From Desulfovibrionales bacterium (GTDB lineage: Bacteria > Desulfobacterota > Desulfovibrionia > Desulfovibrionales > Desulfovibrionaceae): 64,000 bases of DNA. Positions 25,260 through 39,573 of this stretch are shown one piece after another. The notes under the pieces are model-generated. The model was not told the origin of the DNA. It searched no databases and was given only the letters and a program-made list of their open reading frames with translations. The position numbers and the translations under genes are program-made. Positions within the stretch are counted from its first letter, which is position 1. Every line of letters begins with the position of its first letter. The stretch lies in the NCBI GenBank assembly GCA_030156255.1, contig JASGMV010000014.1, positions 1-64,000 of the forward strand. The letters are read 5' to 3'.

Positions 25260-25952
25260 TCAACCAGGGATGCGGAATTTATATCCAACGCCGCGAACGG
25301 TCTCGATCCAGTCAGCGTACTGTCCCAACTTCTGGCGCAATCGGCGGATATGCGTGTCCACGGTGCGGGAGTAGCCTTCGAAATGGGTGTCCCAGACCGT
25401 ATCCAGCAGGTGGTCGCGGGTTTGGACCTTTCCGCTTCCTAAGATAAGTTCGGTAAGCAGTTTGAATTCCGTCGCAGTCAGGGAAATGGGTTCGTTGTCC
25501 ACTTCCAGGCTGTGGGCTTCGAAGTCCACGCTGAGCCCCGCGTGTCGCCAGACCTTGAGCTTGGAGGGCGAATCCGGACCAAAGCGCCGCAGAATGGCCT
25601 TGATGCGCAGAACGATTTCTCTGGGGCTGAACGGTTTGACCACGTAGTCGTCGGCGCCCAACTCCAGGCCCACGATGCGGTCCACTTCCTCGCCCTTGGC
25701 GGTAAGCATCATAACAGGTATTTGAGATGTCTCTATTTTTTGTTTGAGCCTCCGGCAGACTTCCAAACCGTCCAGTCCCGGCAACATCAGGTCCAAGATG
25801 ATCAGATGGGGTTTTTCTTTACTCGCCAGCGTCAAAGCATCGTGCCCGTCGGATGCGGACACGACGTCAAAATCAGCGTTGCTCAGGTTATACTCCAGCA
25901 AATCTCGAGTATCTTTGTGATCTTCTACAACCAATACTTTTTCTTTCGACAC
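25260..25952 (-). CDS. phoB: PhoB-like response regulator (receiver and winged-helix)
   Basis: 230 residues. The receiver domain (MSKEKVLVVEDHKDTRDLL, phosphoacceptor in IILDLMLPGLDGLEVC, then MLTAKGEEVDRIVGLELGA and VVKPFSPREIVLRIK) is followed by an OmpR-type winged helix ending LRQKLGQYADWIETVRGVGY. Length and order match PhoB. The frame is open to 26324, overlapping the receptor gene, but the GTG at 25952 with AGGGGG seven bases upstream gives the natural start. It is followed by phoR, its cognate kinase. Confidence 0.92.
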   Translation of the reverse strand: MSKEKVLVVEDHKDTRDLLEYNLSNADFDVVSASDGHDALTLASKEKPHLIILDLMLPGLDGLEVCRRLKQKIETSQIPVMMLTAKGEEVDRIVGLELGADDYVVKPFSPREIVLRIKAILRRFGPDSPSKLKVWRHAGLSVDFEAHSLEVDNEPISLTATEFKLLTELILGSGKVQTRDHLLDTVWDTHFEGYSRTVDTHIRRLRQKLGQYADWIETVRGVGYKFRIPG

Positions 25953-26034
25953 GCTTAACCCCCTGCAAAGAATGAGCTGATTCATAGCATCGTCGAAATA
26001 GCGGAAAAAAGACAAAATCGTTACAATTAAGTGA

Positions 26035-27903
26035 CTATTCAGTAGGCGTTGCAGTATCGTCCGATTCAGCGTGGAACTTGTCCATCTCTTCAGTAAGTTC
26101 CTGGACGACGTTGTTGAGCCGCTCCGTTGTAATTTTAAATTCACGGATGGTGTCCGTGGTCTGCATGGCGGCTTCGCTGAGCATGGACATGGCTTCGGTA
26201 ATCTGATCGGCGCTTTGGGCTTGATGGTTGATGCCTTCTTTGGCTTGTTCGAAGTGGGGTTGCAGCGCCTGGACGTCTTCAAGCATCGATTCCAGACGCC
26301 GGCCGATTTTGACGACTTCCTCAACGCCCTGGCGTATGTCTTCGTTGAATTTGTCCATTTCCATGACGCCGGAGGATACGGCGCCGTGCATTTCCTTCAC
26401 CATCTGTTCGACGTCGTCGGCCGCAATGACCGTCTGGTCGGCCAGGCGCCGGATTTCCCGGGCCACCACGGAGAAGCCTTGGCCGTATTCTCCGGCCTTT
26501 TCCGCTTCGATGGCGGCGTTGAGCGACAGCAGGTTGGTCTGGTCCGCGATTTTGGCGATCGTGGTGATGATGGAGTTGATGTTGTTCGCCTTGTCGTTGA
26601 TGACCGAAAGCCGGGAGGAGATGGACAGCGTGGCCTTGACCAGATCGCGCATGGTCTGTTCGCGCGCGGAGATGCCTTCGCGCACGGAGTGGGCCACCGA
26701 GGAGGTTTCCTCCACGGTCGCGGCGACCTGCTCCATGGTTTCGACCAGATCCTGGGCCGTGGCCGATATCTGCCGGGTCGTCGCCGTGACTTCGTTGGTC
26801 GAGCTCGCCTGCTGGGACACGGTGGCTTCAAGTTCGCGGGCGGAGGCGGCGATGCCGGACGCCGAGGCCGAGACCTTCCGGTCCGCCGTCTGAAGTCTTC
26901 CCATCAGGGCGAGCAGATTTTCGTTCATGGTGGAGAAGGATTCCACCAAGCTGCCGATTTCATCTTCCGAAGAGATGAATCGGGACAGGGGATTAACGTC
27001 CTTCCGCTTGTCCGGGGATTCCGGCTTCTTGCCGGAGTCGGCGGAATTGCGCTTCAACCGGAACAACATGGACGCGGCCGAAGCCAGTTCGCCGGAGGCT
27101 ATGCGCTTGGCGACCCTGGTCACGGCCGCGACGGGATCGAAGATCGTTTTGAGCGCCCAATACAGGCTGAGGAGCGCGATCGCCAAGACGGAGAGGCATA
27201 GCCCCACCACCCAGGACATGACGCTCCAGGCCTGGCTCGCCACCTCTTGCAATGGAATGGAGACGATCATGGCCGACTCCACCCTATTGAGCTTGCGCCC
27301 GTAAGCGGCGTCGTTTTTGGAGGGGTAGAGGGCCAGCATCGCCTTGGGCGCTTTTTCCTTGGTGGAGTGGCACGTCATGCAGTTCGGCTTGTTCCACTCG
27401 CCGACAGCGATCAGATAGTGGGGTTGGCCGTTGATGTTTCGTACGCCGCTGAAGAAAGGCATGCCGGAGTTCATTTCCAGGGTTCCCTTGATTTTGGGAA
27501 GGGCTTCCTTGCTGTACAGCTTGTCCAAGGCGTGAATAATGTCCGCCTCGACGGGAGTTGCTTTGTTTTTCGGGTTGCGCGGTTTGATGGAGGCGGTTTT
27601 AAACGTCAGATCATGCTTGTACTGGGGAAGAATGCGGTTGAAGACCTGATTGGCCGTATAGGAGGTGGATTGCAGTACGGGATTGAAGGCGTCCGGCCCG
27701 AGGGCCTTGGCGGCCGCCGGCCGAATTTGGGAGCTGACCTGTTTGCGCACGGCCTTCATGGCGAACAGCATGAGTTCGGCCTTGTCCTTGTATTCGTCGA
27801 GCATGATCCGTCTCGTGCACCAGGATGCGAGAATGATCGTCGCCCCGGTCAGCAGGATGAAGAGGCTTGCGCCGACGATCATGTATTTCTTTTTGATGCT
27901 CAT
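26035..27903 (-). CDS. Methyl-accepting chemoreceptor with DUF3365-like c-haem sensor domain
   Basis: 622 residues. Transmembrane segment 1 at about 8-28 and segment 2 at 229-250 bracket a periplasmic sensor with a c-type haem motif CMTCH at 175-179, the pattern of DUF3365/Tll0287-like domains. A HAMP domain and then a methyl-accepting signalling domain follow. The hairpin tip [19 protein letters not shown] has the IEAEKAG form seen in WspA-type receptors. It is the last gene of the Wsp-like operon, 27 bases after the phosphatase gene. The haem could sense redox state or a gas such as NO, CO or oxygen; that is inference. Confidence 0.9.
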
Positions 27904-27930: not shown

Positions 27931-29136
27931 CTACTCCTGAAAATCGAGCTGGACGATGGAGAAGTCGTCTTCATAAGCGTCGCAGCCCTGAAGCTTTTTG
28001 GTGTATTGTATGAGCCGGTCCATGGAGTTTTCGCCTTCAGGAGCCGGCTGGACCATGAAGTCTTCAAACTCGTGGAATTCCCACATGGCGCCGTCGCTGA
28101 CCTTTTTCAACTCGTAGACGCCGTCGCTGTAGAGAAAAAGCGTGGCCGGAGGCGCCAGCTCGATCTGGTCGGAGGAGAAAGAAGTGTCCGGCATGCCGCC
28201 GACGAACAGATTTTTCGTGCGCAATTCCGTGACAACTCGCCGTCCGTCCTGGTTTTGGATCAACAGCGCCGGAGGATGCCCTCCCGAGGCGTAGGACAGT
28301 TGATGCGTTTTGCGGTTCCAGACGCCGTACCAGATCGTAAAATAAAGATTGTTGTGGCGCTCCATTTGGAAGGTGTTGTTCAGGGCGGTGAGCACCTCTC
28401 CGGGATTCCTGAAATTCGCGTCGGGAAGCGTCTGCGAGGTCAAAACGTTCATGGCCGAGACGGAAAGCAGTGCGGAGCCCACGCCGTGGTCGCAGACGTC
28501 CAGGAGGAACATGGCGAAATGGTCGTCGTCGAGCCAGTGGTAGCCGAAGGAGTCTCCTCCCAGAGACGTGGAGGGAACGAATCTCCATTGGGCGAAGACG
28601 GGGGGCTCCTCCAGCGGCGCCGGCAGCTGGGACACCACGTAAGCCGCAGCCCGGGTCAATTCCTTTTTCAACTCCTTCTGGCTGGCCAATAGGGCCTGGT
28701 AGGCCTCGTCGCGCTGGAGCAGATTGATATAGGCCTTGGAGTGGTAGCGGATGCGCGCAATCAATTCGATTTTGTCAGGCAGCTTGACCAGATAGTCGTT
28801 GGCTCCCAGGGCGAAGGCCTCGGCTTTTGTCGAGGCTTCTTCCTTGGAGGAAAGCACGATAAGCGGGATATCCTTGAGCTTCGGGCTCTTGCGCATGAAC
28901 TTGACCAGGGTCAGGCCGTCGATCTCCGGCATGACCAAATCCTGCAGAATCACGGTGGGTTCGAGTTCCGTGGCGGTCTGCAACGCTTTGGCGGGGTCGG
29001 AGATAAAGTGAAAGTCGATGTCTCCCTCTCCGGCCAGCATGCGGCGCACTGCTTCTCCGACCATGGGCTGATCGTCTACAAGCAGCACCGAGATGCGGTG
29101 TTCGGTCAAGGAGGACTCTGTGGCGGCGGGCGGCAT
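27931..29136 (-). CDS. Receiver-PP2C (SpoIIE/RsbU-type) phosphatase, Wsp output
   Basis: 401 residues. The N-terminal receiver domain has the acid pair LLVDDQPMV (Asp21-22), the phosphoacceptor Asp66 in ILQDLVMPEIDG, LSSKEE and a conserved lysine in LVKLPD. A helical linker leads to a PP2C/SpoIIE phosphatase with SLGGDSFGYHWLDDDHFA, LLDVCDHGVGSALLS, YASGGHPPALL and LFLYSDGVYEL; the metal-binding aspartates are present. In the position where Pseudomonas has the diguanylate cyclase WspR, this protein is the probable target of WspE phosphotransfer. It likely dephosphorylates an anti-anti-sigma factor or a partner-switch protein; no such gene is adjacent. Separated by three bases from cheB/wspF. 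Confidence 0.9.
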   Translation of the reverse strand: MPPAATESSLTEHRISVLLVDDQPMVGEAVRRMLAGEGDIDFHFISDPAKALQTATELEPTVILQDLVMPEIDGLTLVKFMRKSPKLKDIPLIVLSSKEEASTKAEAFALGANDYLVKLPDKIELIARIRYHSKAYINLLQRDEAYQALLASQKELKKELTRAAAYVVSQLPAPLEEPPVFAQWRFVPSTSLGGDSFGYHWLDDDHFAMFLLDVCDHGVGSALLSVSAMNVLTSQTLPDANFRNPGEVLTALNNTFQMERHNNLYFTIWYGVWNRKTHQLSYASGGHPPALLIQNQDGRRVVTELRTKNLFVGGMPDTSFSSDQIELAPPATLFLYSDGVYELKKVSDGAMWEFHEFEDFMVQPAPEGENSMDRLIQYTKKLQGCDAYEDDFSIVQLDFQE

Positions 29137-29139
29137 AGT

Positions 29140-30204
29140 TCATTTCTCCCGGTTGGGTTCAGCGAGGAGGGCCGGCAATCCGGAGCGGGTCCTGAAATGC
29201 CGGAGCAGTGCGTTTCCTATTTCGGTGTCGGGCAAAATGCGAACGGCTGCGTCCAGCTCTACGGCCGCCTTGGGCATGCCGTAGACCGTGGACGTCGCTT
29301 CGTCCTGGGCGATGGTGAACCATCCGGCGCGCCGCAGGGCCAAAAGTCCCTCGGCGCCGTCGCGCCCCATGCCCGTGAGCAGGACGCCGGCCGACGGCGG
29401 AAAGGGATGGACGGCCAAGCTCTTGAAGAAAATGTCCACCGAAGGCCGATAGGGATATTTTTCCGGCTCCGGGGTGTAGCGCAGCAGGCGGTCCGGGCCG
29501 AAAATCAGGTGGTCGTCGGTGCCCGCAAGGAGCACCTCTCCTCTGGATAACGGCTCCCCCTCCCTGGCCACACGGACCGGCACGGCGCACTGATGGCTCA
29601 ACCAGTCGGCGAGCCCGCTGGAAAATTGTTTGTTCACGTGCTGGATGACCACGACGGCCATGGAGAGGTCGGCCGGCAAAATCGAGAGTACGTTGCCCAG
29701 CGCTTTCGGCCCGCCGGTGGACGAACCGATGGCCAGCAGCTTGGGCAGGGCCGCGGCGGCTTTGACGTCCAGCGCGCCGACGCGCCCGGCTTTGGGGCTT
29801 TTGTCCACGTGCCCGATGAGTTTGGAGACGGTCATGATTTTTTCCCGAAGCTCGGTCAGCCCGAGAAGCTCCCCGTACGAGCCCAGAGTGGGGATTCGGG
29901 CGGCGTCCAGGGCGCCGAACCCCATGGCTTCGAAGATTTTTCCCGTCTGGGATTCGGGATTTTCCGTGGCGATGAGCACGGCGCAAGGGGAGTCCTGCAT
30001 GATCGATTTGACCAACTGGGGTCCGCTGGGAGCAGGGCCCGCGAGGTCCGCCAGAACGATGTCCGGGGGGGACTCCCGGCAAAATTCCAGGCCTTCGGCG
30101 CCGTTGCGGGCCGCCCAGGCCACCGTCAAGCCGCCAATGGTTTTCACGGCTTGTTGCAGCGCCAGCCTGAGGCTATCGTCCGAATTGATGATCCCAACAC
30201 GCAT
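29140..30204 (-). CDS. wspF: CheB-type methylesterase of a Wsp-like system
   Basis: 354 residues. The receiver domain has NSDDSLRLALQQAVKTIGG, the phosphoacceptor Asp53 in DIVLADLAGPAPSG, and FEAMGFGALDAARIPTLG. The usual receiver lysine is missing and replaced by this GALDA..TLG ending, as in WspF of Pseudomonas. The methylesterase has the catalytic serine in LAIGSSTGGPKALGN (about 161), the histidine in VIQHVNKQF (His189) and the aspartate in TGMGRDGAEG. It removes methyl groups from WspA-type receptors and acts as a brake on the pathway. GGAG lies eight bases before the ATG; it starts directly after wspE. Confidence 0.93.
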   Translation of the reverse strand: MRVGIINSDDSLRLALQQAVKTIGGLTVAWAARNGAEGLEFCRESPPDIVLADLAGPAPSGPQLVKSIMQDSPCAVLIATENPESQTGKIFEAMGFGALDAARIPTLGSYGELLGLTELREKIMTVSKLIGHVDKSPKAGRVGALDVKAAAALPKLLAIGSSTGGPKALGNVLSILPADLSMAVVVIQHVNKQFSSGLADWLSHQCAVPVRVAREGEPLSRGEVLLAGTDDHLIFGPDRLLRYTPEPEKYPYRPSVDIFFKSLAVHPFPPSAGVLLTGMGRDGAEGLLALRRAGWFTIAQDEATSTVYGMPKAAVELDAAVRILPDTEIGNALLRHFRTRSGLPALLAEPNREK

Positions 30205-33200
30205 TTATGGTTCTCCGATGAGGTCGTAGACAGCCTGAAGCAGCGTTTCGTCGTGGAAACTTCCCTTTGTCAGATAGTAGTCGGCGCCGGCGTCCAACCC
30301 GGCCAGGCGATCCTCCTGGCGGTCCTTGTAGGAGACGATCATGATGGGGGTGGCGGCCAGCTCCGGATCGGCCTTGATCTTTCGAACCAGTTCGACGCCG
30401 TTCATGCGGGGCATGTCCACATCGGTAATGATCAGATCGAAGGAATCCAGACGGGCTGTATTCAGTCCGTCCATGCCGTTGACCGCGGTCTGCACGGAGA
30501 AACCGGCGTTCTCCAGGAGCTTGCGCTCCACTTCGCGCACGGTGAGGGAGTCGTCCACCACCAGGATATTCTTGGCGGCCGAGGACTGGCGCTCCGCTTT
30601 GCTCAAGCCGAGTTTTGCGAGCCGCTTTCCCTTGATCAGGCCGTCCACGGACCGGACGAGATCCTCCACGTCCAGAATGAAAACCGGGGAGCCGTCCCAC
30701 AGCCGGGCCACGGCGTAGACGTCTTGTATCTTTCCCAGCCGGCTGTCCACGGGGGTCACGACCAGAGCCCGTTCGCCCAGGAAACGGTCCACCGCGAGCC
30801 CGTAGCGATTCATGCGGTCGGAGATCACCACGATCCGGTGGAAGTCCGTCTCGGTCTGCTGCATGGGCAGCTCAAGAATTTGAGCGGCGTGCACCAGGCC
30901 GATGTTGGAGCCTTCCAGCACGAAGTACTGCTTGTCCTCCACCATGCGAACCTCGTCGAAGGGCAGGTTCAGAATGCGGTCCAGCCTGGTGAGCTGCAAG
31001 GCGAAGGGCTGGCCCGACACCTCCACGAGCAAGGTGCGCAGAACGGAAAGGGTCAGGGGCATCTGCATGCTGAAGGTCATGCCCTTGCCGGGCGTGGATT
31101 CGGCGCGCACGTTGCCGCCCACTTCCTGGATCATGGTGTGCACCACGTCCAGGCCCACGCCCCGGCCGGATATTTCCGTCACCGTGTCCGTGGTCGTGAA
31201 TCCCGGCAGGAAGAGAAATTCCATGAGCTCCGCCCGATTCATTTGCCGGGCCATCTCTTCGGACGCCATTCCTTTGGCGATGACTTTGGAGCGGATGCGT
31301 TCCGGGTCCATGCCGCGGCCGTCGTCCGAGACCGTGACCGCGAGCATGCCGGCGCTGTGGCGGGCCTCCAAGGTGATGACGCCGAGTTCCGGCTTTCCGG
31401 CTTCCCGCCGCTCCTCCGGCGTTTCCAGACCGTGGTCCACGGCGTTGCGCAAAATGTGGTTCAGGGGCGCTTCAAGGCGGTCCAGGATGTCCCGATCCAC
31501 CTGGGTGTCCTTGCCTTTGATCTTGAGCACGGCTTTTTTGTTCAAGGACTTTGCGATGTCGCGGATCAGCCGCGGAAACCCGTGCACGCCGTCGCCAAAG
31601 GGGCGCATCCGGCCGGCCAGCACGTGGTTGTGCAGCCTGTTGTGCAGGTTGTCCGAGCGGCGCACGAAGATGTCGAAATCTTCGATGTGCTCGACCAGGT
31701 TGCGCCGGCATTGGGACAGGCCATGGGCGGCTTGGTTCAGAATTTTTCCGAGGCCGGCGAAATCGTCTCTTTCCAGGCGCTCCTGCATCGCTTCAAGGAA
31801 CCCCGCCATTTCTCGTTGCTTGTTCTTGATTTGCAGGAGGGATTCGCTGAAAGGGGTCAATCGGGAGGTTTCCACCAACGTCTCGCCGGACAAGGCCATG
31901 AGCTGGCTCAGGTTGCGAGCGGAGATGCGCACCACGCCGTCCGTCTCCGCAACGGAGGGCGCGGCGGCGGGGGGTTGGGTCGGAGCGGCCGATTCGGTTG
32001 GTTCGGCCGGTTCTTTTTCCTCGGAGACCGCATACTCCGCGATCAGATGCTGCGCGGCCGGCGCTTCGCCCGAACGGATGGCCTGTCCGAGCTCCTCCAT
32101 GCGGGGAGCCAGCTCCACGGTCAGGGCCGGCAATTTTTCCGCCGGCGTCTTGCTCAACTGCGCCAGGACGTCCGTCCCCTTCAGGAGCAGGTCGATGTCG
32201 TTGCTGGAGAGCGTCCGCTCTCCGTGCTGGGCTGCGCTGAGGGCGTCCTCCATGGCGTGGGCCAGGCCCACGGCGTTGGCCAGCCCCACGATGCGGGCCG
32301 CGCCCTTGATGGAGTGGGCTGCGCGCATCAACGGTTCGACGCGTTCGGGCGACGCTCCGGCCGCCTCCAGCTCCACCAGGCCGGTGGAGAGCACTTGGGC
32401 GTTGCCTTCGGCCTCCACGCGGAAAAGCTCCAGCATGGAAGTGTCCAGCTCCGACTCCAGCGCGGAGGCTGCTTCGGATGCGGGCGCCGGCGCGGTTTTG
32501 GATTGGGGCGCCGCGCTTGAAGGCTGCTGCGCCCGGGCTTGGCCCGCGGCGCCCTCCGGAGGGCCGTGAAGGGCCTGAACCAGTTCCTGAATACGGCTTG
32601 AGAACGTCTCCAACCCTCCAGTCAGCTCGGCATCTTTGCAACGGGCGAGCTCCGCGAGCAGGTCCGCACCCTGCAACAGCTGGTCCACGCGCCCGGACAA
32701 TGCGTTCGGATCCTTCATCGAGGAGGTCAACACGTCCTCCATGGCGTGGGCCAGTTCGACCGGCTGGTTCAAGCCCACGATGCGCGCGGCGCCTTTGATG
32801 GAGTGGGCCGCGCGCATCAAGGATTCAAGGCGTTCGGGAGAGGCGCTGTGCTGCTCCAGCTCCACCAGGCCCGAGCTGATGGCCGCGGCGTTGTCCTGGG
32901 CTTCGGACCGGAAGAGATCCAGCATGGTTGCGTCGATGAGCGGGCCTGCGCCCGACGCGGGCGGTGATGACGGCTTGGGCTCCGGCGCCGGTTTGGGCGG
33001 GGACTTTTCTTGCGTCGCTGCGCGCCCGGACAGGGAGGCCGTCGCCGCCTCCGCTTTGCCCTTCAAGGATTCGATAAGCTGAGGCAACGCGTCGGGTTCG
33101 GCTTGGCCGATGGATGCGAAAATTTTGGCGGCCCGCACCAGGTTGTCCCGCAGCTCGCCGGAGGGTCGCCCCGCCTGCAAGCATTCCTCCATGAACCGGG

Positions 33201-33381
33201 CCAGTTCGGCCAGATCGGACAACCCCACGATGCGCGCGGCGCCGCGAATGGAGTGGGCCGCCCTGGGCAACTCTTCGGAACGCTCCTCGGCGTCCGGGGT
33301 CAATCCGGCGAGGAGGATTCGAGATGCCTCCTCGGCTTCCTGCCGGAAGAGTTCGAGCATGGAGGGGTCGTACTGGTCCAT
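30205..33381 (-). CDS. wspE: Hybrid CheA kinase with three HPt domains and a receiver (WspE-like)
   Basis: 1058 residues. Three phosphotransfer (HPt) domains carry their histidines at 43, 193 and 356 in AAHSIRGAARIVGL or AAHSIKGAARIVGL; the second and third copies are nearly identical over about 60 residues, while Pseudomonas WspE has one. They are separated by Pro/Ala/Ser linkers. A catalytic ATPase domain follows (HILRNAVDHGLETPEER, VSDDGRGMDPERI, ISGRGVGLDVVHTMI), a CheW-like coupling domain, and a C-terminal receiver with ILVVDDSLTVREVERK and IITDVDMPRMNGVELVRK. The ATG at 33381 is preceded by AGGA; an extended frame to 33465 covers only the intergenic repeat. It phosphorylates WspF and, by inference, the PP2C regulator. 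Confidence 0.94.
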   Translation of the reverse strand: MDQYDPSMLELFRQEAEEASRILLAGLTPDAEERSEELPRAAHSIRGAARIVGLSDLAELARFMEECLQAGRPSGELRDNLVRAAKIFASIGQAEPDALPQLIESLKGKAEAATASLSGRAATQEKSPPKPAPEPKPSSPPASGAGPLIDATMLDLFRSEAQDNAAAISSGLVELEQHSASPERLESLMRAAHSIKGAARIVGLNQPVELAHAMEDVLTSSMKDPNALSGRVDQLLQGADLLAELARCKDAELTGGLETFSSRIQELVQALHGPPEGAAGQARAQQPSSAAPQSKTAPAPASEAASALESELDTSMLELFRVEAEGNAQVLSTGLVELEAAGASPERVEPLMRAAHSIKGAARIVGLANAVGLAHAMEDALSAAQHGERTLSSNDIDLLLKGTDVLAQLSKTPAEKLPALTVELAPRMEELGQAIRSGEAPAAQHLIAEYAVSEEKEPAEPTESAAPTQPPAAAPSVAETDGVVRISARNLSQLMALSGETLVETSRLTPFSESLLQIKNKQREMAGFLEAMQERLERDDFAGLGKILNQAAHGLSQCRRNLVEHIEDFDIFVRRSDNLHNRLHNHVLAGRMRPFGDGVHGFPRLIRDIAKSLNKKAVLKIKGKDTQVDRDILDRLEAPLNHILRNAVDHGLETPEERREAGKPELGVITLEARHSAGMLAVTVSDDGRGMDPERIRSKVIAKGMASEEMARQMNRAELMEFLFLPGFTTTDTVTEISGRGVGLDVVHTMIQEVGGNVRAESTPGKGMTFSMQMPLTLSVLRTLLVEVSGQPFALQLTRLDRILNLPFDEVRMVEDKQYFVLEGSNIGLVHAAQILELPMQQTETDFHRIVVISDRMNRYGLAVDRFLGERALVVTPVDSRLGKIQDVYAVARLWDGSPVFILDVEDLVRSVDGLIKGKRLAKLGLSKAERQSSAAKNILVVDDSLTVREVERKLLENAGFSVQTAVNGMDGLNTARLDSFDLIITDVDMPRMNGVELVRKIKADPELAATPIMIVSYKDRQEDRLAGLDAGADYYLTKGSFHDETLLQAVYDLIGEP

Positions 33382-33387
33382 GTCGAT

Positions 33388-33550
33388 CCTGCCTAACGGG
33401 CCGGCCCAAAATGGCGGTCTGCTGCGTTGTGGTGAAAACTCCAAATCCTTTGGTGCGTTATGCACGCGTTGGTTTCGGGGCTTTTTTGCGTCTTGCGTCT
33501 CACCATTTTTGAACGGCCTGCGATAAATATTTTTTCAACAGCCGGTTAAC
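33388..33550 (+). repeat. Dispersed intergenic repeat, copy B, between wspD and wspE
   Basis: The 164-base gap inside the operon contains the repeat. Its core TTGCGTCTCACCATTTTTG and GAACGGCCTGCGAT, then TTTTTTCAACAGCCGGTTAAC, matches copies A and C; the arm from 33409 (GGCGGTCTGCTGCGTTG) also aligns to copy C. The last bases form the stop codon of wspD on the minus strand. Confidence 0.65.
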
Positions 33551-34214
33551 GGATGATTTTATCCAATGAGCTGAAAAGCAATTCCTCGTCCAGGACGCCT
33601 ACCCGTTTATCGCGCAGGGCCAGGATGCCCTTGATGTAGGCGGCGGGCGACCTGGAAACGGTCATGGGCGGCTGCTCCAGAGTATTTTCATTGAAACGGA
33701 CGACGCCCTGAACTTCGTCTACGGGAAAAATAACGGTCTCCGCCTCCTTTTTGCCGGCCGCCAGGAAGCGTTTGAAAATTCGCAGGCTGCGCTTGGTCCC
33801 TCCGGCCTCGGGCAAGACGCCCAGCAGGCCGTGGACGGAGATGCAGGGGTAAATCTGCCCCTGGGCGACGCTGACGCCGAGCAGCAGCTTGCCGGTGCGA
33901 TGCGGAATGGGCCGAATGGTTCGCTCCTCAAAGACGCCCCGCAGGCTCGGCGTAGGCAATCCCACCCATTCGCTCCCCAGGCGAAACACCATGACGCTCT
34001 GTTCGGCCCGGGCGTGGGAGGGCTTGCCTTGGGACAAAAGGGCGGCCGACTCCTCAAGATAACCCTCGGGCGGCTCCCGATCGAGCAGCCCATGCCCGGC
34101 CCGGATAAAGACGGGGCAGTTGCGGCAATGGACGAGCTCTTCCAATCGGGGGCAACTCATGTCCCCGGCGAACCCGATTTCCCGCCAACAGGTTTGGTTT
34201 TCCGTTTCGAACAT
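33546..34214 (-). CDS. wspD: WspD-like CheW adaptor
   Basis: 222 residues from the ATG. The first 70 residues carry a conserved cysteine-rich lead (CWREIGFAGDMSCPRLEEL and VHCRNCPVFIRAG), typical of WspD. The CheW domain follows, with VFRLGSEWVGLPTPSLRGVF, KLLLGVSVAQGQIYPCISVH and VIFPVDEVQGVVRFN. It couples receptors to the kinase in the signalling array. A GTG at 34220 is in frame six bases earlier; neither start has a clear Shine-Dalgarno site. It is separated from wspC by 98 bases that include an inverted repeat GCAAGGA...TCCTTGC. Confidence 0.88.
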   Translation of the reverse strand: MFETENQTCWREIGFAGDMSCPRLEELVHCRNCPVFIRAGHGLLDREPPEGYLEESAALLSQGKPSHARAEQSVMVFRLGSEWVGLPTPSLRGVFEERTIRPIPHRTGKLLLGVSVAQGQIYPCISVHGLLGVLPEAGGTKRSLRIFKRFLAAGKKEAETVIFPVDEVQGVVRFNENTLEQPPMTVSRSPAAYIKGILALRDKRVGVLDEELLFSSLDKIIR

Positions 34215-34312
34215 GCTCACGCCGTTTCGTTAGAGCATTTCGCGGCAAGGAGTTGCGAGCGAATCCTTGCAGAGCGATCCAACGTGTTCCAAGTCAAAGC
34301 GCTCCATGGCCG

Positions 34313-35650
34313 TTATCCGCTGGATTCAACCGCGGCCCGTTCCTTGAGCCGTTTCAGCCTCTGGCGCAGCGCTGCCGCCTGCTTCGCCTTGCCCGAACGT
34401 TCGCAAAGCAAGGCCAGGTGCACCAGTGTTTCCTCGCGTCCGGGCTCCAGGTAAAGAGCCTTCTTGAAGTGCTCTTCGGCCGCTGCGAACCGCTGCGCCG
34501 CCTCCTCCACCAGACCCAAAAGATGATAGACGTCCGCTTCGGGGCGCCCCAGCTTGAGCCGCTGTTCGCACAGCCGCCTCGCGTCGTCCAGACGGCCTTC
34601 GTCCGCCAGGCGCCGGGCCTGCTCCATGTCGTCCGCCGCGATGTTCGGCGCGGCCTCTTTCGCCTGGGGGCTGCTCACCGAAGTTTCGCGCAACGGAGGG
34701 GAGTCCTCGCGCCGCCGTTTGATCGGCTCGGAACGGGTGGCGGCGCGCGCGGGCCTCGTGCGCCGAGGGAGCGGCGCGGCGACCGGTCCCGGCGTCAGGT
34801 CGGCCGTTCGGGGCGCAGGCGCGTCGGGCTGCGTCGCGTCGTCTCTGTTTTTGAGAAAGGCGAACGCCCGGGGGCGGTTGGTGGAGTGGAAGTGCTCATA
34901 GAGCAGCGGCAGCGACTCCGCATGGCCGACGAACAGCACCCCGTCCGGCTTGAGCAGGCGCCAGAGGCGCTTGATGGTGGCGGTTTTGACGTCCGGTTTG
35001 AGATAGATGAGAAAATTTCGGCAAAAAATGGCGTCGTAGGACTGGTTGGCGGGGAAGCCGTCGGGGTCCACAAGATTCGTCTGAAAAAAACGCACCTGGC
35101 GCCGCACCTCGGCGCGGACGGCCCGCCCTTCTTTGTTTTTTTCAAAGTAGCGCTCGGCTTCGAACGGCGCTTGTCCCCGGAAGGAGTTTTTCCCGAAAAC
35201 GCCCTGTTGGGCGCGTTGGAGCGAGGAGCGCGAGATGTCCGCCGCGTCGACGTGGAATTTGTTCGGGTCGAAACCCGACTCCAGCAGGGCCATGGCGATG
35301 GAGTAGGGTTCCTCTCCGGTGGAGCAAGGCGCGGACAAGACGGAATAGAACGCTCCGGTGGCGCGGGCGGCCGCGCTGATTTCCTTGAGCAGGACAAACG
35401 GTTCGAGGTCCCGGAAGAACCAGGTTTCGGGCACGACGATGCGCTCCACCAACTCGTCGAGTTCATCGGGCCGGCAGCGCAAGAGATTTTGGTAGGCGCT
35501 CCAGGTCGGGCTTTTCGTTTGCCGCCGCCGCTCGGCCAGAACGCGCTCCAGCAAGGCGGGGCCGACGGAGTCGGGGTCCATGCCGATGGCCTTGCCAAGT
35601 ATGGCTTGGGCCAGCTCCAGGGCGTCCTGCTTGTCCGATTTAAGCGGCAT
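34313..35650 (-). CDS. wspC: WspC-like chemoreceptor methyltransferase with C-terminal TPRs
   Basis: 445 residues. The CheR core has VVPETWFFRDLEPFVLLKE, the SAM site LSAPCSTGEEPYSIAMALLE, and DAIFCRNFLIYLKPDVK. A Pro/Ala/Arg-rich linker leads to a C-terminal TPR region (MEQARRLADEGRLDDARRL, FAAAEEHFKKALYLEPGREE). A CheR with C-terminal TPRs is the WspC architecture. It methylates the WspA receptors with SAM. The start ATG overlaps the end of wspB by 11 bases. Confidence 0.93.
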   Translation of the reverse strand: MPLKSDKQDALELAQAILGKAIGMDPDSVGPALLERVLAERRRQTKSPTWSAYQNLLRCRPDELDELVERIVVPETWFFRDLEPFVLLKEISAAARATGAFYSVLSAPCSTGEEPYSIAMALLESGFDPNKFHVDAADISRSSLQRAQQGVFGKNSFRGQAPFEAERYFEKNKEGRAVRAEVRRQVRFFQTNLVDPDGFPANQSYDAIFCRNFLIYLKPDVKTATIKRLWRLLKPDGVLFVGHAESLPLLYEHFHSTNRPRAFAFLKNRDDATQPDAPAPRTADLTPGPVAAPLPRRTRPARAATRSEPIKRRREDSPPLRETSVSSPQAKEAAPNIAADDMEQARRLADEGRLDDARRLCEQRLKLGRPEADVYHLLGLVEEAAQRFAAAEEHFKKALYLEPGREETLVHLALLCERSGKAKQAAALRQRLKRLKERAAVESSG

Positions 35651-36104
35651 GTCCTTCCTCGGAATACAGCAGGTTGCGGACGTCGGCGTCGAGGATGTCC
35701 TCCACCTGGACGAACTGGGCCAGACCGTCTTCGGTTTTGAATACGTCGCCCAGATATCGGGCGTCAGGCAGGGCCAGCCCCGAAGGATTCAGGTCGAGTT
35801 CATTGACGACCGTGGTGTCCGTGACCTGCTCCGCCAGGAGGCCGATGGTTCTGTGGATGGCCGGCGCTGGGTTGTAATCGGCGATAATGATGCGCGTGCT
35901 CATGAGGCGACGGCAGGGCCTGCCCATGATGAGCCGGCAGAGGTCGATAATCGGGATGATTTCGCCGCGGTAGTCCAGCAGGCCGGCGACGTAGTCCGGA
36001 GCCTTGTGGGTTTTCATGAGGACGGAGAGGGGGGCGATTTCGCGGACGATCGACGCCGGAGCGGCGAAGCGGTCCTCGCCCAGGGTGAAGACGACCGCAA
36101 GCAT
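35640..36104 (-). CDS. wspB: WspB-like CheW adaptor
   Basis: 154 residues, one CheW domain: MLAVVFTLGEDRFAAPASI, APDYVAGLLDYRGEIIPIID and a C-terminal ILDADVRNLLYSEEG. It links the WspA receptors to the kinase. The second CheW of the operon (WspD) is different in having a Cys-rich lead. Spacing to wspA is three bases, and it overlaps wspC, so translation is probably coupled. Confidence 0.9.
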   Translation of the reverse strand: MLAVVFTLGEDRFAAPASIVREIAPLSVLMKTHKAPDYVAGLLDYRGEIIPIIDLCRLIMGRPCRRLMSTRIIIADYNPAPAIHRTIGLLAEQVTDTTVVNELDLNPSGLALPDARYLGDVFKTEDGLAQFVQVEDILDADVRNLLYSEEGHAA

Positions 36105-36107
36105 GTC

Positions 36108-38339
36108 TTACGAACTCACCTTGAATCGCGTTACTTCGGACTGCAGCGCCTGAACCGCCTGGTTGAGCTGGGCCGCGACCTGATTGAACGCCCGGACCGC
36201 CTCGGACGCGTGCTGGGCCGCGGTGGACAGGTCCGCCATGGCGCGGCTGATCTGGGACGCGCCTTCGGATTGCCCCCGGGCGCCTTCGCTCACCGTCTCC
36301 AGCCGGGGCTCCAGGTCCTGGACCCGCAGCATGATTTCCTCCAGCGAGCCTCCGATTTTATGGGTTTCGTCCACGCCGTTTTTCACGTCCGTCGTGAAAC
36401 GCTCCATTTCGTCGACGCCTTCGCTCACGGCGTCGAGCATTTCATTGACCCGCTTTTCGATATCCAAGGCGGCCACGGCGGTCTGGTCCGCCAGCCGGCG
36501 GATTTCCCGGGCCACCACGGCGAAACCCAGGCCGTAGTCGCCGGCTTTCTCCGCCTCGATGGAGGCGTTCAGGGAGAGCAGGTTGGTCTGGTCCGCCACT
36601 TTGGTGATGGTGCTGATGATGGATACGACATCGTTGGCCTTGTCGAACAGGTCGGCCAGCTTGCCGGTGATGGAGTCCGTGGAGGAGGAAAGAGCGCCCA
36701 TGGTCCGGGCCATCTGGCTGAGGTCCTTGCGGCCTTTGGCCGCCAGGGCGGCGGTCTTGTTCGTGGACTCCAGAACGTTTCTCACCGTTTCCAGCAGGTT
36801 TCTGGACGTGGCCGTGATTTCGTTGACCGCGGAGCTCACCTCCGCGGTATTGGCGCCGTTGCTCTCCACCGTGGCCTCCATTTGGCGGGCGGAGGCGGCG
36901 ATTTCGGTGGAGGAGGTGGTCACCTGCACGCCGGAGCGTTGGACTTGTCCGACCAGGGAGTTCAGGTTGTTGATCATGCCCAGCATGGCGATGTAAAGCT
37001 GGCCCGTCTCGTCCAGGCCGGACGAGCTGCCGATTTCCGCTTTGCGGCTCAGCGCCGGCTGAGACAGGGCCAACTCGCTCATCCGCTCTCCCGCGGACTC
37101 GACGTCGCATTCGGCCACGTCCTGGGCGATGGTCACCATGCGCCGTATGGGGTCGGTGATCATGCTCCCGTAATGGAAGGACAGGATCAGCACGATGAAC
37201 AGAACAACGCCGCCGCACGCGAGCACTTGCTGGGTGTACGCCTCCATGGACGTGCGCATCGCCATGCGCGCGTCGTGGTAATCGTCCAGGTAGGCGCCCG
37301 CGCCCACGACCCAGTCCCACGGGGCGAAATAAGTGAAGGCGGCGAGCTTGGTGCGCTCTTCGGGATCGCCGGGGTTTTTCCAGTTGTATTGCTTGTAGGA
37401 TATGTGGCCGGGATTGACGCTTTCCCGCCGGGCGTCGCTGATGATTTCCTGGACGAAGCCGCGCCCCGCCGCGTCCGTTGCATTGAGGATGTTCTCTCCG
37501 TTGCGCAGGTTGTCCTGGGACAGGATGTATTGCCCCTTGTCCTTGCCATCGGCGCCCAGCACCCACACGTACCCGCTCTTTCCTACGGAGGTGTCCGACA
37601 ACGCCTTGAGAACGTTGTGCATGATGTTCATGGACAACGACACTTCCATCATGCCGATAACGTCGCCGTTGGGGGAAAACACGGGTTCGAAGTTCCTGAT
37701 CGTCGTCTCAAGGTCGGGAAGAACTTCCTCGTGGTAATTTTGCATTTGCAGGGCGGCTTGAATGGCGGGATTCATGCGGCCGTCGGCCGTCTTCGCCGGG
37801 AGAATGCGCCCGATGGTTCTGCGGCCGTCCGCGTTGGTTGTGGTGGCGGCCGCCTGAAGCATGTCGCCTTCCGCGTTGATGCGCTGATAAAGCGAGCAGT
37901 CGGCTCCGGTCAGGCGTTTGACCTTGTCCACGACGGGGGAGTCTTCGGTCAGGGAGGTCTGCTTGCCGATCCATTCGCCGCCGATAGCCAGGGCGGGGAG
38001 CTCCAACGTGCTGTTCCGGTTCGTCAGAGGATTGTAGGCCTTCCAGCGTACGTTTTTTTTCAGCAGGCTGGCGCCGCCGTCCTCCTCCAGAATCGTGCTG
38101 GCCGCGACCCTCGCCTTGATCACCCGGTCCACCTGCAGTTGGTGCACGGTGCTGCAAAGGCGGTAGACGTCCTCCGCGATTTGCCCCACGTTGTCTTGCG
38201 CCAGCCCGTCCAACTCGTCGCTGAGCTGATTTTCGAGGCGCTTTTCCAGGCCCGGCGTGATGATGGAGATCAATAGAAAGGGGATCAACGCGGCCAGAAA
38301 GGCCAGCCCGATGATTTTATAGCGCAACGACAGCCGCAT
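36108..38339 (-). CDS. wspA: WspA-like methyl-accepting chemoreceptor with Cache sensor
   Basis: 743 residues, inner membrane, the first gene of the Wsp-like operon. Transmembrane 1 is at about 9-29 (IIGLAFLAALIPFLLISII). A periplasmic sensor of about 330 residues follows; segments such as LSDTSVGKSGYVWVLGADG and FTYFAPWDWVVGAGAYLDD have the look of a Cache domain, which binds small molecules. Transmembrane 2 (QQVLACGGVVLFIVLILSF), a HAMP-like linker, and the signalling domain with [20 protein letters not shown] complete it. IEAEKAG and [19 protein letters not shown] match WspA-type receptors. The frame opens to 38471, but ATG at 38339 gives a natural start. Its sensed ligand is unknown. Confidence 0.92.
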   Translation of the reverse strand: MRLSLRYKIIGLAFLAALIPFLLISIITPGLEKRLENQLSDELDGLAQDNVGQIAEDVYRLCSTVHQLQVDRVIKARVAASTILEEDGGASLLKKNVRWKAYNPLTNRNSTLELPALAIGGEWIGKQTSLTEDSPVVDKVKRLTGADCSLYQRINAEGDMLQAAATTTNADGRRTIGRILPAKTADGRMNPAIQAALQMQNYHEEVLPDLETTIRNFEPVFSPNGDVIGMMEVSLSMNIMHNVLKALSDTSVGKSGYVWVLGADGKDKGQYILSQDNLRNGENILNATDAAGRGFVQEIISDARRESVNPGHISYKQYNWKNPGDPEERTKLAAFTYFAPWDWVVGAGAYLDDYHDARMAMRTSMEAYTQQVLACGGVVLFIVLILSFHYGSMITDPIRRMVTIAQDVAECDVESAGERMSELALSQPALSRKAEIGSSSGLDETGQLYIAMLGMINNLNSLVGQVQRSGVQVTTSSTEIAASARQMEATVESNGANTAEVSSAVNEITATSRNLLETVRNVLESTNKTAALAAKGRKDLSQMARTMGALSSSTDSITGKLADLFDKANDVVSIISTITKVADQTNLLSLNASIEAEKAGDYGLGFAVVAREIRRLADQTAVAALDIEKRVNEMLDAVSEGVDEMERFTTDVKNGVDETHKIGGSLEEIMLRVQDLEPRLETVSEGARGQSEGASQISRAMADLSTAAQHASEAVRAFNQVAAQLNQAVQALQSEVTRFKVSS

Positions 38340-38738
38340 GGCGTTCTCCTCGGCGACGGGCGAGAAATAGCCCCAGGTCCAAGCAAACATCCTGGTTGTA
38401 TGTGCTTTGCGCTGTGAAATCAATCTCCCGCCCGAAATCCGCTGGAGCTTTGGCCGGGCGCCCGTCCCCAAGCAAGTATTTCAAGTGTAATTTGCTCGAA
38501 TAGGAGCACAAAATTTGTAACAAATTTTGTGCTCCTATTCAGCCTGCGCGGGAAGCGGATTCCCGCGTGTCTTCGTTGGCGCGTTCGGTTTTGCGCGGCG
38601 ACTCATGGAATCGGAAAGTTCGGATATTTCCGCTCCCATGAGTAAAGGCCCGGCGCGCACGGCCGATAAGACAGGCGTGTGAAGGACTGCTTTGAAGACG
38701 ATCAACAGATTCCGGGCCATGGGCCGCGGAGGATGCGC
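38340..38738. other. Intergenic region upstream of the Wsp-like operon
   Basis: This 399-base gap separates wspA from the small plus-strand gene at 38739. It must hold the promoter of the operon, but no clear -35/-10 pair was recognised. Its main feature is the 41-base palindrome at 38499-38539. The open frame at 38535-38744 (minus) looks non-coding (low-complexity, no start signals). Confidence 0.8.
38499..38539. promoter_or_regulatory. Perfect 19-bp palindrome with a 3-base centre
   Basis: AATAGGAGCACAAAATTTG at 38499-38517 and its exact complement at 38521-38539 around TAA. There is no T-run on either side, so it is unlike an intrinsic terminator; it is more likely an operator or a strong structural element in the region upstream of the Wsp-like operon. 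Confidence 0.75.
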
Positions 38739-39114: not shown

Positions 39115-39573
39115 CTAAACCTGTTGTGAACAATCCCGGTTGCGGCGGATCGCTTCGGTCAGGGTGGCCATGGCCGAGGCGACGTCGCTTTGGGCGTCCT
39201 GCATCTGCAACAGGGTCTCCAAGGTGGGTTCGCGTTCGTCTATAGCGCGGCGCACGGCCGCGCAGAATCGGCCCACGCCTTCCGCAATGTCCAGCAAATG
39301 CTTTTCGCGGCTTTTCTCCGTACTGGGACGTATGGTGAGCGGCGTCACGGCGTAGTTCAGGGATCGGGCCAAATGCGCCAACGGAGCGATGTCCCCCGTG
39401 GCGCGCATGATCGCCGCCAGGGACTCCACCCCGATCTTCGCCCGGAGGTCCGCCGGGTTGATCTCACGCATGAACAGGGGATAGGGCTTGCCGACTTCCT
39501 TGGCCACCTCCCGGGCGGAGCGGCGGCATTCTTGAACGCTTTGCTGAATGATCCGGGTCAATTCTCCTTGCAT
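39115..39573 (-). CDS. CII-like helix-turn-helix regulator of unknown target
   Basis: 152 residues. The N-terminal half has a helix-turn-helix-like pattern: IIQQSVQECRRSAREVAKEV then KPYPLFMREINPADLRAKIG and VESLAAIMRATGDIAPLAHL. This arrangement (two helix pairs, then AIMRATGD) resembles the phage regulatory CII family (PF06892), which also occurs as stand-alone genes in Desulfovibrio. The C-terminal part is predicted helical and may dimerise. It lies on the same strand, about 326 bases after the hybrid kinase gene, so it may be regulated separately. Family assignment is from pattern only. Confidence 0.65.
   Translation of the reverse strand: MQGELTRIIQQSVQECRRSAREVAKEVGKPYPLFMREINPADLRAKIGVESLAAIMRATGDIAPLAHLARSLNYAVTPLTIRPSTEKSREKHLLDIAEGVGRFCAAVRRAIDEREPTLETLLQMQDAQSDVASAMATLTEAIRRNRDCSQQV

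What the first reader, a model, noticed from the sequence alone, without database searches (positions are those of the whole stretch)
26035..27903. c-type haem receptor as second input of the Wsp-like array
The last gene of the operon is a chemoreceptor with CMTCH in a periplasmic DUF3365-like domain. Its signalling tip has the same IEAEKAG form as WspA, so both may join one array. Inference: the array integrates a Cache ligand and a redox or gas signal in an anaerobe.
Basis: partly seen in the sequence, partly recalled or inferred. Interest (0 to 1): 0.6.

Follow-up and report, generated by a model that had tools for sequence, protein, structure and literature searches.

The report
Haem receptor in Wsp-like phosphatase operon
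In a sulfate-reducer-type bacterium, a cell-surface receptor predicted to carry a covalently bound haem is the second input of a chemotaxis-like signalling array that probably controls a protein phosphatase switch rather than swimming, so the cell could weigh a nutrient signal against a redox or nitric oxide signal.

Summary
It has two TM helices, a Tll0287/DUF3365 domain (Pfam E 1e-28) with CMTCH at 175-179, and an MCP hairpin with IEAEKAG at the tip. The domain belongs to the recently named sCache_heme family, and c-haem MCPs are known (GSU0582, GSU0935, DcrA).

The array inference is well supported by comparison. (1) In 20 of 20 genomes of four genera the haem MCP directly follows the response regulator of the same Wsp-ordered operon; in another genus it sits beside the first MCP. 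(2) Its hairpin falls in the Wsp clade (100/100), while all nine unrelated haem MCPs fall in the chemotaxis clade. (3) In two genomes the tip segments of both receptors are 93% identical in DNA, above orthologue identity, while their flanks are only 65-71% identical: gene conversion at the partner-binding tip. (4) The length class matches WspA (40H), but that does not discriminate here.

Correction: the output is not WspR. The receiver is WspR-like (64%), fused to a SpoIIE/PP2C phosphatase. Relatives embed STAS and RsbW genes in the operon, pointing to a partner switch. Haem attachment and the ligand (NO or redox) remain untested.

The parts
26035..27903 (-). haem MCP (P0001, 622 aa): TM1, periplasmic sCache_heme/DUF3365 domain with CMTCH, TM2, HAMP-like segment with long connector, 40H signalling hairpin with EAEKAG tip
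27367..27381 (-). CMTCH motif (residues 175-179)
27931..29136 (-). response regulator REC-SpoIIE/PP2C; receiver plus linker 64% identical to a WspR over 140 aa, GGDEF replaced by phosphatase
29140..30204 (-). CheB/WspF-type methylesterase
30205..33465 (-). hybrid CheA/WspE-type kinase: three Hpt domains, HATPase, CheW, REC
33546..34220 (-). second CheW (WspD position)
34313..35650 (-). CheR with C-terminal TPR (WspC type)
35640..36104 (-). first CheW (WspB position)
36108..38471 (-). first receptor (WspA position): Cache_3-Cache_2 double Cache MCP with EAEKAG tip; the true start is probably downstream of the TTG of the listed ORF
25260..25958 (-). PhoB-type response regulator, conserved next gene in most relatives; possibly co-transcribed

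Best explanation
The gene encodes a membrane chemoreceptor whose periplasmic Cache-type domain carries one covalent c-type haem (inferred). It is a dedicated second receptor of the Wsp-type (ACF) array encoded in the same operon. The double-Cache receptor and the haem receptor have interchangeable 40H hairpin tips, so they bind the same CheW proteins and the same hybrid CheA (inferred from comparative evidence). A change at the haem, either NO binding or oxidation with a change of the distal ligand, alters the helix pair feeding the HAMP segment and biases CheA (inferred from studied relatives). CheA phosphorylates the WspR-like receiver of a REC-PP2C regulator, whose phosphatase dephosphorylates a STAS anti-sigma antagonist and so flips an RsbW-type partner switch (inferred; STAS/RsbW genes sit in this operon in relatives). 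The cell thereby weighs a Cache ligand against a redox/NO signal in a non-motility decision.
For: Domain: Pfam E 1e-28; AlphaFold2 model (pLDDT 78.5) whose only confident PDB match is Tll0287 5b82 (E 6e-07), with the GSU0935 sensor 3b42 among the next matches at weak E 0.012; invariant CxxCH; cytochrome c assembly proteins in the genome. Same array: the haem MCP directly follows REC-PP2C in 20/20 genomes of four genera and sits next to MCP1 in G068 and G036; hairpins align without gaps with MCP1 and WspA; Wsp-type clade 100/100, with 9/9 other haem MCPs in the chemotaxis clade; tip segment of the two receptors 93% nt identical, third positions 86-88%, versus 78% between orthologues and 65-71% nt in flanks, in two genomes. 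Output: receiver 64% identical to a WspR, SpoIIE E 3e-35, STAS and RsbW genes in the operon in three distant lineages including a Desulfovibrio.
Against: No experiment. Operon mates need not share an array: Shewanella McpA and Aer2 share an operon but signal to different arrays (PMC9855816), although those two belong to different length classes. The 40H class is shared with chemotaxis MCPs here, so cross-talk with the chemotaxis array is not excluded. Gene conversion could reflect tandem proximity alone, and it is seen in only two genomes of one genus. The distal haem ligand is unresolved. No STAS/RsbW gene lies near the operon in this genome.
Confidence: 0.72

Rival explanations
1. The haem receptor is a chemotaxis receptor that only happens to lie beside this operon, and it signals to the flagellar array.
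For: Most chemotaxis MCPs of this genome have the same 40H hairpin length. Operon mates that join different arrays are known (Shewanella McpA/Aer2, PMC9855816). Most DUF3365 MCPs in the order are of the chemotaxis type.
Against: Its tip and whole hairpin fall in the Wsp clade with 100/100 support; linkage holds in 20/20 genomes and survives a rearrangement; tip gene conversion is with MCP1.
Confidence: 0.12
2. The haem acts as a redox-potential sensor (redox-linked ligand and spin change, as proposed for GSU0582/GSU0935), not as an NO sensor. This is a rival to the NO reading of the input only, compatible with the array and output parts of the best explanation.
For: Closest published MCP relatives were interpreted this way, with potentials of -156 and -251 mV (PMC8396549); the host belongs to a family of anaerobes; Met49 is invariant in all 11 operon orthologues and could be a switchable ligand.
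Against: Signalling-associated sCache_heme of Pseudomonas azotoformans behaves as an NO sensor (PMC12889525). The domain lacks any Cys besides CMTCH, so the His/Cys ligation of the redox-type stand-alone proteins is not possible.
Confidence: 0.45
3. The domain keeps CxxCH but the haem is structural, and the real ligand is a small molecule at the Cache pocket.
For: Cache domains usually bind small ligands (PMC12889525).
Against: CxxCH is about 99% conserved across the family (PMC12889525) and invariant here; known relatives respond at the haem.
Confidence: 0.08

Closest known systems
sCache_heme / DUF3365 / Tll0287-like sensors (PMC12889525; MCPs GSU0582 and GSU0935, PMC8396549)
   Same: periplasmic Cache-type domain with one CxxCH, in an MCP
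   Different: published c-haem MCPs are treated as chemotaxis receptors; this one has a Wsp-type hairpin and belongs to a phosphatase-output operon
Wsp system (WspABCDEF + WspR) of Pseudomonas
   Same: gene order MCP-CheW-CheR(TPR)-CheW-hybrid CheA-CheB-regulator; 40H receptor class (WspA is 40H, PMC2577667); EAEKAG tip; WspR-like receiver
   Different: PP2C phosphatase instead of GGDEF; Cache and haem sensors instead of a four-helix bundle; two receptors; two extra Hpt domains in CheA
Shewanella Che1-CrsR/CrsA and Pseudomonas SiaABC-type switches (PMC9855816, PMC7647112)
   Same: phosphatase/partner-switch logic, in Shewanella linked to a chemosensory cluster
   Different: Shewanella Che1 is an F7 cluster and CrsR carries its own anti-sigma domain; here the regulator is REC-PP2C only and the array is ACF/Wsp type
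CheR-TPR/ACF clusters (PMC3447774)
   Same: the survey already lists REC fused to PP2C among ACF outputs
   Different: no haem receptor is mentioned there
DcrA of Desulfovibrio
   Same: c-haem MCP of a sulfate reducer
   Different: CHHCH motif (recalled for DcrA from general knowledge) with cytoplasmic PAS (PMC8396549) and a chemotaxis hairpin; two DcrA-like genes are present separately in this genome

Membership tests
sCache_heme (DUF3365/Tll0287-like, PF11845) | match to the family profile above its cut-off | tested here: met
   101 bits against a cut-off of 24.1
sCache_heme (DUF3365/Tll0287-like, PF11845) | CxxCH conserved, in an extracytoplasmic domain | tested here: met
   CMTCH 175-179 between two TM helices; invariant in 11 orthologues
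sCache_heme (DUF3365/Tll0287-like, PF11845) | Tll0287 fold | tested here: met
   top PDB match 5b82, E 6e-07, probability 1.00, TM-scores modest (0.48/0.57)
sCache_heme (DUF3365/Tll0287-like, PF11845) | covalently bound c-type haem | not testable with these tools
   assembly genes are present in the genome
signalling-type (NO-sensing) sCache_heme | no axial Cys; fused to a signalling output | tested here: met
   the only periplasmic Cys are those of CMTCH; MCP fusion
signalling-type (NO-sensing) sCache_heme | tight NO binding, no stable oxy complex | not testable with these tools
   needs purified protein
Wsp system | gene order MCP-CheW-CheR(TPR)-CheW-hybrid CheA-CheB-regulator | tested here: met
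   same order as a reference Wsp operon on a Mesorhizobium plasmid
Wsp system | 40H receptor with Wsp-type tip | tested here: met
   ungapped alignment with WspA and clade 100/100; WspA class from PMC2577667
Wsp system | terminal output WspR (GGDEF), or WspH in Burkholderia | tested here: not met
   SpoIIE/PP2C output; only the receiver is WspR-like
ACF chemosensory class | multidomain response regulator and CheR-TPR | tested here: met
   criteria from PMC3447774
PP2C/STAS/RsbW partner switch | SpoIIE phosphatase with STAS and RsbW partners | tested here: inconclusive
   phosphatase present; STAS/RsbW in the operon of L037, L073 and L078, but in this genome STAS-RsbW pairs lie elsewhere
DcrA-type c-haem MCP | CHHCH plus cytoplasmic PAS | tested here: not met
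   CMTCH, no PAS

The most novel reading that the evidence does not exclude
A chemoreceptor array takes the place of the sensory complex of an RsbU-type switch. A periplasmic c-haem NO/redox receptor and a Cache receptor share one Wsp-type array whose kinase drives a REC-PP2C phosphatase and a STAS/RsbW partner switch, and the array keeps its two receptors compatible by gene conversion at the tip.
Probability: 0.55. Interest if true: 0.62.

Novelty: new variant of a known kind. Interest (0 to 1): 0.5.

Why it matters
It would link two topics of current interest: the newly defined haem-bearing Cache domains, which so far lack a pathway beyond chemotaxis and kinases, and ACF arrays, whose signals and outputs are mostly unknown. 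It gives a compact, testable case of signal integration in one array (Cache ligand plus haem), with a predicted biochemical readout (phospho-STAS dephosphorylation), and it offers a comparative criterion (tip gene conversion) for saying which receptors share an array.

Tried and rejected
Hairpin length class as a discriminator: rejected, since nearly all MCPs of this genome are 40H. Finding the distal haem ligand by homology to GSU0935 Met60 or the Tll0287 axial Cys: the PDB profile searches align only the part around CxxCH, so the ligand stays open. His97 as ligand: not conserved. Whole-genome download was not available. Looking for the same haem receptor on plasmid Wsp operons: best hits are WspA-type receptors without CxxCH. 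The genome-contig scan returned mostly non-haem Wsp receptors; among them only two loci, both also among the genomes of the window's own family, carry the haem receptor. Promoter/terminator scan: no more sites than expected by chance, uninformative. A sensor-domain tree did not resolve the origin of the operon haem domains (65/99).

Full report
What is there. The gene of the finding is on the minus strand, 27903->26035, 622 aa. It closes a tightly packed minus-strand cluster: double-Cache MCP (38471-36108), CheW, CheR-TPR, second CheW, hybrid CheA with three Hpt domains and a REC, CheB, REC-SpoIIE/PP2C, then the haem MCP. A PhoB/PhoR-type pair follows. Pfam gives Tll0287-like (DUF3365) at residues 34-217 (E 9.7e-29) and MCPsignal (E 1.6e-31). 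CMTCH is at 175-179, between TM helices near 8-26 and 227-245. The genome has cytochrome c assembly proteins.

The sensor domain. An AlphaFold2 model from a three-sequence alignment (mean pLDDT 78.5, pTM 0.77) has one PDB match below E 0.001, Tll0287 (5b82, E 6e-07). The c-haem MCP sensor GSU0935 (3b42) ranks fourth but weakly. A 2026 preprint renamed this family sCache_heme, found CxxCH in about 99% of members, and showed that a signalling-associated member binds NO tightly and forms no stable oxy complex, while a stand-alone member looks redox-type with a His/Cys haem (PMC12889525). Two Geobacter MCP sensors were instead interpreted as redox-linked spin switches (PMC8396549). The window protein has no periplasmic Cys besides CMTCH, so His/Cys ligation is not possible. 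Met49 is invariant in the operon family but could not be shown to be the distal ligand. NO versus redox therefore stays open.

Same array? The hairpin aligns without a gap with the first receptor of the operon and with a genuine WspA taken from a GGDEF-output Wsp operon on a Mesorhizobium plasmid. WspA is classed 40H (PMC2577667). The test is passed but weak: the MCPs aligned from this genome are all of this length except three, which lack 21 residues on each side of the tip. Tip sequence discriminates better: 3 of 21 MCPs have EAEKAG (the two operon receptors and one orphan), the rest EAARAG.

A tree of hairpins separates two clades with 100/100 support. One holds all operon receptors, haem or Cache, WspA and the orphan; the other holds the chemotaxis MCPs and all nine other haem (DUF3365) MCPs examined, including one from this genome. 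So DUF3365 sensors occur on both kinds of hairpin, and this one is on the Wsp kind.

Linkage. Among 297 genomes of the order, 30 hold a full-length orthologue of the REC-PP2C regulator. In 20 of 20 genomes of four genera (g1, g14, g30, g37) the haem MCP lies directly after it. In genus g4 the haem MCP stands beside MCP1 at the start of the operon in G068, and in G036, where the operon is broken by contig ends; in G049 it lies about 1 Mb away. In g20 and g33 the operon has no haem MCP but still has two MCPs with EAEKAG tips: a 349-aa MCP without a recognised sensor in g20, an 806-aa one in g33. Two receptors per operon is thus the rule across the orthologues inspected, and the haem receptor is the commonest second one.

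Gene conversion. In G036 and G068 the segment from -60 to +60 residues around the tip is 93% identical in DNA between MCP1 and the haem MCP of the same genome (third positions 86-88%). Each gene compared with its orthologue in the sister genome gives 90-91% (78%). Outside that segment the two receptors are only 65-71% identical. In G049, where the genes are unlinked, the segment drops to 80%. The tree shows the same effect: g4 haem hairpins group with g4 MCP1 hairpins (99/98), not with other haem MCPs. Homogenisation restricted to the CheA/CheW-binding tip is what selection for a shared partner would keep, although proximity alone could produce it. A caution from the literature: two MCPs in the Shewanella che1 operon go to different arrays (PMC9855816), but they are of different length classes, unlike here.

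Output. The receiver plus linker of the response regulator is 64% identical over 140 aa to that of a WspR, but its effector is a SpoIIE/PP2C phosphatase (E 3e-35). Known Wsp outputs in beta- and gammaproteobacteria are WspR or WspH (PMC8552884). A survey of CheR-TPR clusters lists PP2C among ACF outputs (PMC3447774), so the swap is not without precedent. Among 80 named loci with Wsp-type receptors, 6 have REC-PP2C and 23 REC-GGDEF; the only two with a haem MCP, L071 and L136 (Desulfovibrio sp. Madre1), are the same contigs as G205 and G251 (judged from contig lengths and coordinates). In Madre1 a STAS and an RsbW gene precede the operon directly; RsbW/STAS pairs also flank such operons in a Methylacidiphilaceae bin and in bacterium SM23_31. 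In the window's genome, four RsbW-type genes pair with STAS genes; two pairs have their own PP2C gene (C91:65633, C102:828) and two do not (C91:15391-16113, C91:168116-168863). The operon-embedded pairs match these two orphan pairs best, so they are the predicted targets.

Mechanism. Shown by sequence: the parts, their order, the shared hairpin class, the conserved linkage and the REC-PP2C output. Inferred: covalent haem, NO or redox input, mixed array, phosphorylation of REC-PP2C, and a STAS/RsbW target.

Verdict. All modules are known, the combination was not found in the papers searched, and I rate it a new variant of a known kind.

Noticed in passing
L070:6515-8710 (+), genome contig C54 14.5-16.7 kb: Orphan double-Cache MCP with EAEKAG tip in the Wsp hairpin clade and no che genes nearby; a candidate third receptor of the same array.
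   Followed up: partly
L053:3228-5234 (-) and L054:4606-6618 (+): Two DcrA-like MCPs with CHHCH and chemotaxis-type tips; with L051 (DUF3365, CLACH) the genome has at least four predicted c-haem MCPs.
   Followed up: partly
L052:2690-5392 (+): Hybrid histidine kinase with a DUF3365 haem domain (CLKCH), the third DUF3365 protein of the genome.
   Followed up: no
L198 and L200 (genome contig C91): Two RsbW-STAS pairs without their own PP2C; best own-genome matches of the STAS/RsbW genes embedded in related operons.
   Followed up: partly
window 26035-27903 and 36108-38471: Both operon receptors have a stretched HAMP connector: about 58 and 47 residues from the AS1 Pro to the AS2 Glu, against 27 in the reference WspA; Pfam does not score a HAMP in either.
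   Followed up: partly
window 30205-33465: CheA has three Hpt domains with the AAHSIxGA motif; orthologues range from about 784 to 1410 aa, so the number of N-terminal Hpt copies seems variable.
   Followed up: partly
L073, L078, L084, L128: Wsp-ordered operons with REC-PP2C output in Methylacidiphilaceae, SM23_31, Riflebacteria and Acidobacteria bins, without a haem receptor.
   Followed up: partly
L191:6409-7458 and orthologues in genus g20: Short 349-aa MCP with EAEKAG-type tip and no recognised sensor, encoded just before the long MCP of the same operon type.
   Followed up: no
window 39115-39573 (-): Phage CII (CP76)-like regulator conserved between dapF and the operon in relatives; a possible regulator of the operon.
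   Followed up: no
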